From assembly GCF_000332095.2 (NCBI RefSeq), contig NZ_KI913949.1:5170814-5234813 (forward strand): a stretch of DNA of 64,000 nt, given 5' to 3'. A program made the position numbers and the translations under genes. Under the pieces are notes generated by a model, which saw only the letters and a list, made by a program, of their open reading frames with translations, had not been told where the DNA came from and made no database searches. This document shows, one piece after another, positions 1 through 3,411 of this stretch. Origin of the DNA: Leptolyngbya sp. PCC 6406 (GTDB lineage Bacteria; Cyanobacteriota; Cyanobacteriia; Phormidesmidales; Phormidesmidaceae). Position 1 is the first letter of the stretch; each line of letters begins with the position of its first letter.

Positions 1-1
1 G

Positions 2-289
2 GCTCTGTGGACGTTTGTCACGGTGCTGGGGGTGGAGCCCACCAATAATACGGCTGAGCGTTCTTTGCGAGCTGGGGTGATTTGGAAGCGCATCAGCTTT
101 GGGGCGGAGTCTCAGGCCGGCAGTGAGTTTGTCGCCCGGATGCTGACGACGGTTTCTTCTCTGACGATGCAGCAGCGAGATGTGCTGGACTTTCTCACTC
201 AAGCCTATTGGTCGGCTCGCTTTGGCCAACCGCCTCCTTCATTGCTGCCTTTGGCCACTCATCAGCCTCAAACCCTAATCACGCCGTGA
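2..289 (+). CDS. IS66-family transposase, C-terminal part (runs off the window edge)
   Basis: The frame is open from the first bases and ends with TGA at 287-289, so only the last ~96 residues of a larger transposase are visible. The segment VEPTNNTAERSLR followed by the ISFG and FVARMLT blocks is the conserved C-terminal end of the IS66 DDE domain, and the Glu near TNNTAE belongs to the catalytic triad. The 3' terminal inverted repeat cannot be placed with confidence. The defence operon begins only 21 nt further on, so this element may have truncated whatever preceded it. Whether the transposase is intact depends on sequence outside the window. Confidence 0.85.
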   Translation, partial: ALWTFVTVLGVEPTNNTAERSLRAGVIWKRISFGAESQAGSEFVARMLTTVSSLTMQQRDVLDFLTQAYWSARFGQPPPSLLPLATHQPQTLITP

Positions 290-310
290 CCCCCTAAAGG
301 CTTACGTTAA

Positions 311-1297
311 ATGAGGCTGAGTGAAATTCACAAGTCACGGCAAATTCCTATAATCAATACATCTACGCCCATTATTATTCCCTCTTTTTCAAGTCGTGGC
401 TTTCCTTATATTGGGGATATTTATAACAACACAAAACGATATTTGGGTAAATCTTCTTTAATAAGTGCCTACGATATTCATTATGGAAACGTGCCTCAAG
501 ATGACATATATGCCTCAGATATTCTCTTTATTGATAGCGGTGGCTATGAAGCTAAACCTGTTCCAGACTTAACTGAATCATATGTAGATGGGCGTTTGTA
601 AAACGGATGGTCGACTGATTATTACGAAGCCGTTCTAGAAAGATTACAGCCTCTTTCCAAGTTGGTAGTTGTGAATTATGACTACTCAGATCCTCATCCT
701 ATTAGCGCTCAGATTGATTTGGCAAAAAACCTTTTCCAAAAACATCCAAATTACGCTACCAACTTCCTATACAAACCAGAAGACGGTAAGAGCTTAATTA
801 ACTTAGGCACTTTAACTAATAGCATTCAATTGATCGAACCATTCTCAATTTTGGGGATTACCGAGAAGGAATTAGGAGGCTCACTTCTTGAGAGATGCTG
901 CAATCTTCTTCAAATTCGCACTGCACTTCTAGAGGTAGGATTGGAAACACCCATCCATATTTTTGGTTGTTTAGATCCTGCTGTTATGGTTGCTTACTTT
1001 TTATGCGGGGCTGATGTTTTTGATGGGTTAGCTTGGTTGCGGTACACATTTGACCACGGGTTTGTGACCTATCATTCAACTGCAACTATTTTGAAGGAAC
1101 AATGGTGTATTTCTGAGGAGGATTTATTGCTTACCCGTTGGATTTCCAACCTTGAGTATCTTGAAGCTTTAACTAGAAGCATGAAAAGGTTCTGTAAAAC
1201 AGGCTTGGTTAATGAATTTTGTCTAGATCAAAGTCTTCTTACACAAGTGTTGTGTTTGGTTAAACTATCAGGTATTGAGTTTGAGGGAGGAAATTGA
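311..1297 (+). pseudogene. TGT-like (tRNA-guanine transglycosylase fold) defence-associated protein, interrupted by in-frame TAA
   Basis: Read through the TAA at 599-601, this is one continuous 328-codon frame. The N-terminal part carries FIDSGGY (Asp75), matching the DSGGFQ active-site motif of TGT enzymes. The C-terminal part carries a GITEKELGG turn and GADVFDG (Asp238), matching the region of the TGT nucleophile aspartate. The Cys-rich zinc site of housekeeping TGT is not visible. The frame overlaps the next gene (TGATG, 1295-1299), so it is the first gene of an operon with a CD-NTase and a SLATT effector. TGT-fold proteins (Cap10) are known accessories of type IV CBASS, where base modification is inferred. 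The nonsense codon probably inactivates it; sequencing error or readthrough cannot be excluded. A TTG at 662 could restart only the second part. The stretch looks AT-richer than the core genes. Confidence 0.72.
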
Positions 1298-2238
1298 TGA
1301 GCGGCAATGGTGGTTCAGGATATACCCCAAGGAGTTCTCAATCAGGAATTGAGCGACTGATCCAGCAGGCTGAAGGTCGCATTGAAGAATCAGTCTACAA
1401 CAGCCAAGCTAATGATCTTCTTCAAGAAGTATTAAAAGATTTTAACCAAAGGGATACTTCAAAGAACTGGGAGTATATCAATGCCTTAAAGGATGCAATA
1501 AATGAGGGCATTGAGGGAACTGTTGATCTAGCTTTTGGTGGCTCGGTTCGCAAGCACACCTACATTAACGGTTTGAGTGATGTTGATTTGCTTGTGCAAA
1601 TAAACAATACCTCGTTGACACAGGCATCACCACAGGAAGTTTTAAGGCATTTTGAATCCCAAATTAAAGCTGCGTTAAGGAATGTGGATGGCGTTCAAGT
1701 TTCGTCCGGCAATTTGGCAGTCACAGTGTCTTACCCAGATGGAACTAAACTGCAACTGTTACCCACCATAAGAACAGCTTCAGGGTTCCGAATTGCAAGT
1801 TCTAGAGATCCGGAGCAATGGAGCAATGTTGTACGCCCAGCTTCTTTTGCTCGCAAGCTGACTGAAGCAAATCAAGCTAACTCTGGAAAAGTAGTGCCAA
1901 TTGTCAAGCTGTTTAAGGGGCTAGTAAATGAGTGTGGAATAGACCTATCAGGTTATCATGCTGAATCCCTTGCTATAAAGGTTTTTGAGAACTACCAGGG
2001 TGGTACATCTTATAAAGAAATGTTGACCCATATGTGCCGTGTCTCTACAGATCTTGTTAAATCACCCATAGCAGACCGTACTGGGCAGTCTTTGCATGTA
2101 GATGATTATTTGGGCTCAGCTAATAGTCTCCAGCGGCGTCAAGTTTCTCAATCATTATCAAGGTTGGCACAACAAATGGAGGTAGCTGACACACAACGAT
2201 CGATAGCAAGATGGCAGGAGTGGTTTGGTGATGAGTAA
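1297..2238 (+). CDS. CD-NTase-like nucleotidyltransferase (CBASS-type signal synthase)
   Basis: The ATG at 1297 overlaps the stop of the TGT-like gene and has GGGAGG at 1285-1290 as its ribosome binding site. The protein is ~313 aa. Residues 81-83 (GGS) and Asp95/Asp97 (SDVDLLV) form the Pol-beta nucleotidyltransferase motif GS...DxD. The strand expected to carry the third carboxylate reads KLQLLPT, with Gln153 where many CD-NTases have Asp. Family knowledge: CD-NTases make cyclic oligonucleotides on phage infection, which switch on a neighbouring effector. The effector here is the SLATT gene that overlaps its 3' end. The unusual third position leaves open whether the enzyme is catalytic or belongs to a clade with a shifted acidic residue. 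A plain minimal nucleotidyltransferase is less likely because of the SLATT neighbour. Confidence 0.8.
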   Translation: MSGNGGSGYTPRSSQSGIERLIQQAEGRIEESVYNSQANDLLQEVLKDFNQRDTSKNWEYINALKDAINEGIEGTVDLAFGGSVRKHTYINGLSDVDLLVQINNTSLTQASPQEVLRHFESQIKAALRNVDGVQVSSGNLAVTVSYPDGTKLQLLPTIRTASGFRIASSRDPEQWSNVVRPASFARKLTEANQANSGKVVPIVKLFKGLVNECGIDLSGYHAESLAIKVFENYQGGTSYKEMLTHMCRVSTDLVKSPIADRTGQSLHVDDYLGSANSLQRRQVSQSLSRLAQQMEVADTQRSIARWQEWFGDE

Positions 2239-2824
2239 TCCTAACAATTCCCTAGTCGAACAACTCAAAACAATGAGTCGGCGAGCTAACCAGATGGCTA
2301 CTATGCATAGTAGGCTCCGAGACCACTACGATTGGTGGAATTCAACAACAAACATTTTCTTGTTGATTTTTTCGGCTTGTTTGCTTGCAATCGCCTTCAT
2401 TTCTGATGATTTCCTGCAACGCACTACGGGTATTTCGCCTGATACCTTTAAGTGGATTAACGGTATCACTGCCACAGCCAATTTCTCGGTCAGTCTTGTG
2501 CTCCTCGCTTGGCAACCTGCTGAAAAAGCTGCGGCACATGCTCAGGCAGTAAATCACTATGCAAAGATGAGATATGAAATTAAGCGATTGGAAGCCAAGT
2601 CAACCCAACTAGCTGAAGATGACGTTAGTACGCTAGAAGAGGCTTATTTCAACACACATGACCTACCTGGAATATCAGAGAAGCAATTTCTTCCTCTGAA
2701 ACAGTGGCATTTGCTTAAGGTAGTCCTTAGTAAGGAAATTGATGCAAATCCATATGTACCTTTATGGTTCCTACGATTGAAGATGTTGCTGAAAAGTAAT
2801 AGAAAGCCCCCCAGTCAACCTTAG
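2231..2824 (+). CDS. SLATT-domain two-transmembrane effector
   Basis: A 197-aa protein whose ATG at 2231 lies inside the end of the nucleotidyltransferase gene (8-nt overlap), showing translational coupling; upstream TTG (2225) and GTG (2228) codons are alternatives. Two hydrophobic helices are visible at about residues 40-58 and 76-95. They are flanked by an N-terminal helix containing SRLRDHYDWWN and a long charged C-terminal helical part. This is the layout of the SLATT (SMODS and SLOG-associating two-TM effector) families. In CBASS and related systems such proteins are thought to breach the inner membrane after sensing the cyclic nucleotide made by the partner enzyme. It acts in the cytoplasmic membrane. 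The gene looks intact and ends 26 nt before a convergent gene. Confidence 0.8.
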   Translation: MSNPNNSLVEQLKTMSRRANQMATMHSRLRDHYDWWNSTTNIFLLIFSACLLAIAFISDDFLQRTTGISPDTFKWINGITATANFSVSLVLLAWQPAEKAAAHAQAVNHYAKMRYEIKRLEAKSTQLAEDDVSTLEEAYFNTHDLPGISEKQFLPLKQWHLLKVVLSKEIDANPYVPLWFLRLKMLLKSNRKPPSQP

Positions 2825-2850: not shown

Positions 2851-3411
2851 TCAGCCTTCAAATTTCATGTTCTCTGCCAACATGTTGCAAAATAAAGCTC
2901 CTTGCTCGATAGCATCGTCTAAGGCAACGTGACTGTGTGGAATAGGAGCAATCCAACGTTTCGGCATATTTCGTTTGGCAGCTTGTGAATACTCTGTTTT
3001 AAGCATGGCCATTGCGTAGGTTTTTATATCTAATGCCGAATGGGAGAATGGACTTTCGCCGACAAATCGAATTAGATACCAGTACACAAATAAAAAATCG
3101 AATCCGGCAGGGTAAGCCACAAATACTGGGTTTCCAGGTAATGACTTTAACCAAGCCAGATAGCCTTGCATAGCATTTGAAGGTTCTTGAGGATCGACCT
3201 GAGTCGCTTTCCAAGCATCAGGTTGGCTTTGCCACCATTCCATCGTTTTAGGATCGGCGCTTCCGTCTGGAAGAGGTTTAAGGTTAATAGCGAAAGTCCC
3301 AACCAGGGTTTTATCTTTCAAGTAGGCAGCAGATGCAAGGCTAAGCATTGAGTTCGGCCCAGGGATAGGGCCGTCAGTTTCAACATCGGTACTGACATAA
3401 ACTTCAGTCAT
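2851..3411 (-). CDS. DEDDh 3'-5' exonuclease (Rv2179c-like family)
   Basis: A 186-aa protein with all DEDDh landmarks: Asp9 and Glu11 in STDVETDG, Asp105 in AGFDFLF, and His161/Asp166 in HVALDDA. This fold removes nucleotides from 3' ends of RNA or DNA with two metal ions. The size and the spacing to HVALDDA fit the Rv2179c-like 3'-5' exoribonuclease family better than oligoribonuclease or DnaQ. The start overlaps the stop of the small gene just upstream by 8 nt, so the two are translated together. It is convergent with the CBASS-like operon. A defence role is only an inference from location; the sequence alone says nuclease. Confidence 0.8.

What the first reader, a model, noticed from the sequence alone, without database searches (positions are those of the whole stretch)
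311..2824. Compact TGT-like / CD-NTase / SLATT operon: a reduced type IV-like CBASS
Three overlapping + strand genes encode a TGT-fold protein, a CD-NTase-like enzyme and a two-TM SLATT protein. TGT (Cap10) together with QueC-like (Cap9) and OGG (Cap11) proteins is known from type IV CBASS. Here only the TGT-like gene is left beside synthase and effector, and an IS66 tail lies 21 nt upstream. Either this is a minimal naturally occurring architecture or the rest was removed by the insertion. Known: CBASS, SLATT and TGT families. Inference: that they act as one system.
Basis: partly seen in the sequence, partly recalled or inferred. Interest (0 to 1): 0.78.

Follow-up and report, generated by a model that had tools for sequence, protein, structure and literature searches.

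The report
IS-split, stop-interrupted type IV CBASS operon
This is a known kind of bacterial anti-phage system (type IV CBASS) whose supposedly missing gene lies just outside the window, cut off by a jumping gene, while another of its genes carries a stop codon, so it is probably a recently broken copy and not a new minimal system.

Summary
The three genes are real and belong together, but this is not a reduced type IV CBASS. The QueC-like gene (Cap9) is present about 1.4 kb upstream of cap10, just outside the window, behind an IS66-type element with a perfect 8-bp target duplication, inserted exactly at the cap9/cap10 junction. The window edge made it look absent. The best PDB matches of the three core proteins are the crystallised type IV proteins Cap9, Cap10 and CdnD, and the locus that encodes those crystallised proteins carries a SLATT gene next to cdnD. 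OGG (Cap11) is absent here and from the nine cyanobacterial relatives with enough sequence, so its absence looks like a branch trait, not an effect of the insertion. The locus departs from intact relatives in three ways: the IS split, an in-frame stop at codon 97 of cap10, and Ser instead of the usual Gly at CdnD position 2, the deazaguanylation acceptor. The first two predict a disabled system; the third is of uncertain effect. Of wider interest is something noticed in relatives: rhizobial loci carry the QueC/TGT/OGG trio without a CD-NTase, beside a small protein (TIR in six of eight loci) that begins with an MGGG tail like the CdnD acceptor.

The parts
1..305 (+). 3' end of an IS66-type element (transposase tail plus right inverted repeat). 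The whole element is about 1427 bp and begins outside the window.
   Evidence: PF03050 DDE_Tnp_IS66 match of the tail, E 4.3e-4, below the curated cut-off (the whole transposase was not scanned); inverted repeats at both ends; ten matches at 100% identity in the genome, this one included, with a 982-base piece of it (nine over all 982 bases, one over 971)
306..313 (.). 8-bp target-site duplication; the same 8 bases flank the left end of the IS upstream of the window. It contains the cap10 ATG (311-313).
311..1297 (+). cap10 (TGT-family protein that in the studied system binds the tagged CdnD tail), broken by an in-frame TAA at 599-601 (codon 97)
   Evidence: PADLOC TGT 8.6e-123; PDB 9ntn_A Cap10 1.6e-49; stop; the closest relative L009 has a sense codon there
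1297..2238 (+). cdnD, CD-NTase. GGS and DxD intact; residue 2 is Ser where most relatives have Gly.
   Evidence: PADLOC 2.4e-127; NCBIfam CBASS_cyclase_b 289.6 bits against cut-off 200; PDB 9ntn_G CdnD 1.3e-67; columns; N-termini
2231..2824 (+). SLATT-family (PADLOC '2TM') protein, the presumed membrane effector
   Evidence: PADLOC 2TM effector PDLC00681 2e-43; NCBIfam SLATT_4 5.7e-11, below its cut-off; transmembrane helices were not predicted by a tool here
2851..3411 (-). DEDDh-type exonuclease, convergent neighbour; probably not part of the system
   Evidence: PADLOC Exonuclease effector 9.8e-33; also convergent beside cdnD in L016, but no cap9, cap10, cdnD or SLATT match near it in 5 of 5 other cyanobacterial loci examined

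Best explanation
This is a type IV CBASS operon of an OGG-less cyanobacterial branch, cap9-cap10-cdnD-SLATT, recently split by an IS66-type element between cap9 and cap10 and further damaged by a nonsense codon in cap10. In the intact form, Cap9 (QueC-like) joins 7-carboxy-7-deazaguanine to the N-terminal glycine of CdnD, Cap10 (TGT fold) binds that tagged tail, activated CdnD makes a cyclic oligonucleotide, and the SLATT protein responds in the membrane, harming the infected cell. The first two steps are shown for a relative in the literature; the last two are inferred for this family. Here the truncated Cap10, the interrupted operon and possibly Ser2 of CdnD predict a system that no longer works, or works poorly.
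For: Cap9 just upstream of the IS: PADLOC QueC 6.7e-78, PDB 9nto_B Cap9 2.5e-34. Cap10 and CdnD best PDB hits are 9ntn_A and 9ntn_G. Perfect 8-bp duplication and matching inverted repeats bound the IS, and ten matches at 100% identity with a 982-base piece of it point to recent activity. The closest relative, L009 (Pseudanabaena SR411, Cap10 80% identical), has cap9-cap10-cdnD contiguous with no IS. Pseudanabaena ABRG5-3 has the four-gene order on a plasmid. Among 69 related loci, cap9 lies upstream in 56 of the 59 with at least 900 bp of upstream sequence, and cdnD is present in 63 of the 65 with at least 1000 bp downstream; of 62 loci with cdnD and at least 1800 bp downstream, SLATT is present in 44. 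L034 encodes the matched stretches of crystallised Cap9, Cap10 and CdnD letter for letter, with SLATT and OGG next. The stop removes later Cap10 residues that are invariant or nearly so: E185, E187 and G219 in 66 of 66, D238 and W242 in 65 of 66.
Against: Loss of function is not shown. dN/dS against L009 is as low after the stop (0.139) as before (0.155), so the stop is young, is read through, or is an assembly error; no reads were available. Ser2 also occurs in one other locus whose neighbouring genes are present (L064), and Ala or Thr in three more, so it need not be inactivating. CdnD and SLATT are intact and might be transcribed from the IS. One cyanobacterial relative, L076, lacks a cap9 match, but it is a fused Cap10/CdnD remnant.
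Confidence: 0.88

Rival explanations
1. A minimal, naturally occurring TGT/CD-NTase/SLATT system that works without QueC and OGG.
For: cdnD and SLATT are intact; OGG is absent from 9 of 9 cyanobacterial loci with enough sequence (L010-L017, L023).
Against: A QueC-like Cap9 is present upstream of the IS. Of 59 related loci with at least 900 bp of upstream sequence, 58 have a cap9 match (56 upstream, 2 downstream of cap10); the one miss, L076, is a remnant in which the front of Cap10 is fused to the back of CdnD. cap10 is broken here.
Confidence: 0.03
2. The locus is still functional: cap9 is expressed from its own promoter, cap10-cdnD-SLATT from the IS, with stop read-through or a sequencing error in cap10.
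For: Low dN/dS on both sides of the stop. Cap9 keeps its SGGxDS, RN, HxxxxYxDC and CxxCxxC motifs, with only its last residues replaced by IS-encoded ones. CdnD GGS and DxD are intact.
Against: Two lesions in one operon; residue 2 of CdnD departs from Gly in this locus and not in its nearest relative. Cap9, Cap10 and the conjugation are essential in the studied system (abstract, PMC11996544).
Confidence: 0.12
3. The convergent exonuclease at 2851-3411 belongs to the system as a second effector.
For: PADLOC files it as a CBASS exonuclease effector, and a homologue lies in the same convergent place beside cdnD in Hyella (L016).
Against: In 5 of 5 other cyanobacterial loci with strong homologues no cap9, cap10, cdnD or SLATT match lies in the 13 kb examined (three weaker homologues were not examined). 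It is on the opposite strand; L016 has a separate Cap17-like effector beyond it.
Confidence: 0.12

Closest known systems
Type IV CBASS, crystallised Cap9/Cap10/CdnD (PDB 9ntn, 9nto; Wassarman et al. 2025, abstract PMC11996544)
   Same: Best PDB match of each of the three core proteins; same order cap9-cap10-cdnD-SLATT as L034, which encodes the matched stretches of the crystallised proteins letter for letter.
   Different: No OGG gene; IS between cap9 and cap10; stop in cap10; Ser in place of Gly at CdnD position 2.
Pseudanabaena sp. ABRG5-3 plasmid type IV CBASS (NZ_AP017561.1, locus L006)
   Same: Four-gene cap9-cap10-cdnD-SLATT order; no OGG match.
   Different: Not interrupted; CdnD begins MGGS; proteins 32-42% identical.
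Pseudanabaena sp. SR411 (locus L009)
   Same: Closest relative: Cap10 about 80%, Cap9 85%, CdnD 82% identical over the compared parts.
   Different: No IS, no stop, Gly2; the contig ends inside cdnD, so its effector is unknown.
qatABCD (QatC is QueC-family; PMC13279940, passages read)
   Same: A QueC-family enzyme paired with a partner that has an essential N-terminal glycine tail.
   Different: Its partner QatB has no structural homology to the CD-NTase (PMC13279940, passages); not what is here.

Membership tests
Type IV CBASS | CD-NTase of the CBASS family | tested here: met
   NCBIfam CBASS_cyclase_b 289.6 bits against cut-off 200; PDLC00790 2.4e-127; GGS and DxD intact
Type IV CBASS | QueC-like Cap9 in the operon | tested here: met
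   Upstream of the IS, outside the window: PDLC00911 6.7e-78, 9nto_B 2.5e-34. One motif departs: His where the Cap9 motif Y/FxQ(x)5E has Gln, in L009 too.
Type IV CBASS | TGT-like Cap10 | tested here: met
   PDLC00913 8.6e-123, 9ntn_A 1.6e-49; present but interrupted by a stop
Type IV CBASS | Gly2 acceptor (MGGS) on CdnD | tested here: not met
   Window starts MSGNGGSG; Gly2 in 60 of 65 legible CdnD N-termini. Four other loci also depart, so it is a strong tendency and not an absolute rule.
Type IV CBASS | Effector gene | tested here: met
   SLATT/2TM PDLC00681 2e-43; the commonest effector, in 44 of 62 loci
Type IV CBASS | OGG-like Cap11 | tested here: not met
   0 matches in own genome; the 14 control genomes gave none either, but 2 of 2 OGG-bearing genomes did. 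Absent in 20 of 57 related loci, so not treated here as strictly defining.
Type IV CBASS | Deazaguanylation and anti-phage activity | not testable with these tools
   needs mass spectrometry and phage assays
IS66-family insertion | IS66 transposase | tested here: inconclusive
   Only the tail inside the window was scanned: PF03050 20.2 bits, below its cut-off of 23.1
IS66-family insertion | Terminal inverted repeats and 8-bp target duplication | tested here: met
   that these are typical of IS66 is recalled

The most novel reading that the evidence does not exclude
The deazaguanylation toolkit of which this locus is a damaged copy is not tied to CBASS. In rhizobia the same QueC/TGT/OGG trio stands without a CD-NTase beside a small protein with an N-terminal MGGG tail (TIR in six of eight loci), so it may tag TIR immune proteins: a deazaguanylated, Thoeris-like defence system. 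This concerns related loci, not the window genes themselves.
Probability: 0.5. Interest if true: 0.68.

Novelty: new member of a known kind. Interest (0 to 1): 0.25.

Why it matters
It removes a false lead: there is no evidence here for a QueC-free minimal type IV CBASS. It records a recent decay of a type IV CBASS that is rare in cyanobacteria (1 of 386 sampled genomes, this one) and suggests that OGG is not needed in a whole branch. The comparison also brought up a CD-NTase-free system with the same toolkit, which would test whether N-terminal deazaguanylation is a general switch for bacterial immune proteins.

Tried and rejected
Minimal architecture: rejected because cap9 lies upstream of the IS. 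Removal of genes by the insertion: rejected; the duplication is perfect and both flanks are present. First gene outside the TGT superfamily: rejected, although Pfam TGT alone is below its cut-off. Exonuclease as part of the system: left as unlikely. MtlR-like gene upstream of cap9 as part of the operon: no relative of it in the other loci held. CdnD search in 386 cyanobacteria at E<=1e-20: own genome only; Cap10 family at E<=1e-10: own only. Viral contigs: nothing in three scans. The structure model of the L075 small protein gave a Rossmann-like order of strands and helices with weak, unspecific PDB matches and no TIR among the 50 listed, so it is not claimed as TIR by fold. Paper searches; those (OGG/effector; cyanobacteria) gave nothing used. 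The script's automatic start choice took an upstream GTG/TTG in six loci (L009, L016, L024, L062, L068, L074), and it set aside L057 and L063 wrongly; I corrected the six by eye and the two. L076, first taken for a doubtful hit, is a Cap10/CdnD fusion remnant.

Full report
What is there. Window 311-2824 holds three + strand genes: a TGT-like gene (311-1297) with an in-frame TAA at 599-601, a CD-NTase (1297-2238) and a SLATT-family protein (2231-2824). PADLOC profiles fit all three very strongly: TGT 8.6e-123, cyclase 2.4e-127, 2TM effector 2e-43. NCBIfam names the second a CBASS cyclase, 289.6 bits against a cut-off of 200. By sequence the only PDB match of the first is Cap10 (9ntn_A, 1.6e-49) and the best of the second is CdnD (9ntn_G, 1.3e-67); the abstract of PMC11996544 reports structures of Cap10 and Cap9 of type IV CBASS, and PMC13279940 cites 9NTO as its Cap9-CdnD complex.

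The gene said to be missing. The window begins inside an insertion sequence. Reading on upstream in the same genome shows a QueC-like gene ahead of the IS, whose only PDB match is Cap9 (9nto_B, 2.5e-34) and whose PADLOC family is QueC (6.7e-78). It keeps SGGxDS, RN, HxxxxYxDC, PFxxxxK and the CxxCxxC motif, but has His where the Cap9 motif Y/FxQ(x)5E has Gln, as L009 has too (motifs as given in passages of PMC13329287). So cap9 is present; the window edge hid it.

The insertion. The IS is about 1427 bp, has matching terminal repeats, and is flanked by the same eight bases on both sides, the right copy at window 306-313. The right copy contains the cap10 start codon, so the element landed at the cap9/cap10 boundary, and the last few Cap9 residues are replaced by residues read from the IS. 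The Pfam IS66 match of the transposase tail in the window is below its cut-off (4.3e-4), and the whole transposase was not scanned; the family name rests on that match together with the 8-bp duplication and the terminal repeats. A 982-base piece of the element has ten matches at 100% identity in the genome, this one included (nine over all 982 bases, one over 971), plus shorter pieces: a recently active element.

Relatives. A scan of one genome per species (84,980 genomes) with a three-sequence Cap10 alignment gave 69 loci from 143 pattern matches. Profiles built in the box gave these counts. Cap9 lies upstream in 56 of 59 loci with at least 900 bp of upstream sequence. The misses are L072 and L075, where cap9 lies downstream, and L076, which has none. 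CdnD is present in 63 of 65 loci with at least 1000 bp downstream; the two misses are again L072 and L075. L076 is a remnant in which the front of Cap10 is fused to the back of CdnD. Of 62 loci with cdnD and at least 1800 bp downstream, SLATT is found in 44 (upstream of cap9 in L019-L021, on the other strand in L061), a Cap17-like effector in 14 (in L028 upstream on the other strand), and neither in 4 (L030, L031, L057, L076). OGG is found in 37 of 57 with cdnD and at least 2700 bp downstream. L055/L056 and L018/L059 are near-duplicates, so these are not counts of independent events. The method needs two conserved peptide motifs and misses strongly diverged members.

Cyanobacteria. Type IV is rare there: 1 of 386 sampled genomes has a Cap10-family match, and it is this one; the same holds for close CdnD relatives. 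The wider scan gave eleven further cyanobacterial loci (L009-L017, L023, L076). The nine with enough sequence and an unfused cdnD (L010-L017, L023) all lack OGG, and no OGG match lies in L002 or in Pseudanabaena ABRG5-3 (L006). A whole-genome search for the OGG family found none here (nothing rang in its 14 controls either) nor in the genomes of L010, L012 and L017, while the genomes of L034 and L041, used as positive controls, both gave a match, the first with an internal stop. Absence of OGG is therefore likely a trait of the branch; it is also seen in Bacilli and Rubrobacter loci. Effectors in the branch vary: SLATT in the window, L006 and L023; Cap17-like with CHAT in L010 and L017; Cap17-like with a phosphorylase domain in L011 and L016.

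SLATT is the ordinary effector. Locus L034 encodes the matched stretches of crystallised Cap10 (295 aa), CdnD (305 aa) and Cap9 (179 aa) letter for letter, and its next genes are SLATT and OGG. SLATT beside cdnD is therefore normal for type IV.

Damage. First, the IS splits the operon. Second, cap10 stops at codon 97, after the DSGGYE motif and before invariant or nearly invariant residues (E185, E187, G219, D238, W242); the nearest relative, L009, has a sense codon there. dN/dS against L009 is 0.155 before and 0.139 after the stop, so the lesion is young or not real. Other loci also have cap10 in more than one reading frame (L014, L063, L066). Third, CdnD begins MSGNGGSG. The type IV motif is MGGS, with Gly2 as the acceptor of the deazaguanine tag (passages of PMC13279940). 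Of 66 loci with a cdnD hit, 65 N-termini were legible (L076 is a fusion) and 60 have Gly2; the five without are the window (Ser), L064 (Ser), L037 and L069 (Ala) and L070 (Thr) (six starts corrected by eye, two). Since L064 has its neighbouring genes, Ser2 alone is not proof of inactivity.

Mechanism. From the literature (abstract of PMC11996544; passages of PMC13279940 and PMC13329287): Cap9 conjugates 7-carboxy-7-deazaguanine to Gly2 of CdnD; Cap10 binds the modified tail; Cap9, Cap10 and the conjugation are essential for defence. By inference: CdnD then signals to the SLATT membrane protein. The host has its own tRNA-type TGT and two PTPS-family matches in one reading frame, a possible QueD. 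It has no second full-length QueC match: the third PF06508 match covers 61 of 210 positions at 22.4 bits, just over the cut-off. Whether the tag precursor is made was not tested further. With Cap10 truncated I expect no defence (about 75% by my judgement).

Neighbour. The convergent DEDDh exonuclease at 2851-3411 has a homologue in the same place in Hyella (L016). Nine of 386 cyanobacterial genomes have a match, the own one included; the five strong other homologues were examined, and none of the CBASS genes lies in the 13 kb around them; three weaker ones were not examined. I do not count it in.

Side lead. Among the Cap10 relatives, L072 and L075 (Mesorhizobium) and the plasmid locus L007 (Agrobacterium) have no CD-NTase match. 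Six loci (L007, L110, L111, L112, L116, L117) share the order PfkB-like kinase, a TGT protein of 466-487 aa, an OGG-like gene or an ORF of that size, QueC, and a small TIR protein. The TGT protein is a TIR-TGT fusion by Pfam in L007 and L112 and annotated TIR in L110 and L111; the OGG-like gene is Ogg-HhH by Pfam in L007 and L112 and annotated as a DNA lyase or glycosylase in L110 and L111; L116 and L117 were assigned by profile for the kinase, TGT, QueC and TIR genes only. The small protein matches Pfam ThsB_TIR in L112 (7.3e-23, the only one scanned) and PADLOC ThsB models. In L072 and L075 the order is TGT, Ogg-HhH, QueC, small protein; their small proteins have no Pfam match, and L075's has no PADLOC match and only a weak one to the TIR profile of the other loci (1.6e-4). 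In 8 of 8 loci the small protein starts MGGG, like the tail that Cap9 modifies; six of the eight are one close family, so these are not eight independent cases. Related TGT genes occur on 13 rhizobial plasmids, of which I opened four, and in 3 of 297 genomes of one family, the query's own included. Two papers on QueC-family defence functions do not contain a word beginning 'TIR' (listing counts), and a search for 'TIR domain' with '7-cyano-7-deazaguanine synthase' gave no paper. Most subscription papers are not in that library, so this is not proof of novelty.

Verdict. An ordinary though rare member of type IV CBASS, probably broken. Interest is low for the locus itself, and higher for the side lead.

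Noticed in passing
L007:2838-7238; L110:1076-5438; L111:1027-5438; L112:1053-5447; L116:4604-9092 (-); L117:4314-8723; L072:6950-9665; L075:6779-9482: CD-NTase-free rhizobial loci with TGT, an OGG-like gene (or an untested ORF of that size in L116 and L117) and QueC, next to a small protein starting MGGG (in L112 matching ThsB_TIR at 7.3e-23); six have a PfkB-like kinase first. Possibly a TIR defence system with N-terminal deazaguanylation.
   Followed up: partly
window CdnD residue 153 and its column in relatives: The position that I recall as the third acidic metal ligand in many CD-NTases is Gln in 62 of 63 aligned type IV CdnD sequences (L057 and L076 left out).
   Followed up: no
window 2851-3411 (-) and L016:2031-2612 (-): DEDDh exonuclease convergent to the CBASS genes in two cyanobacteria; elsewhere (L088-L091) it lies beside ORFs of 440-469 aa without Pfam matches.
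   Followed up: partly
L002:7484-8071 (upstream of cap9, outside the window): MtlR-like gene (PF05068, 9.7e-8) about 250 bp before cap9; not found in the other type IV loci.
   Followed up: partly
L014, L063, L066 (cap10); L033 (cdnD); L043 (SLATT); L076 (Cap10/CdnD fusion): Several related type IV loci also have a core gene in more than one reading frame, and one is a fusion remnant, by decay or assembly error.
   Followed up: partly
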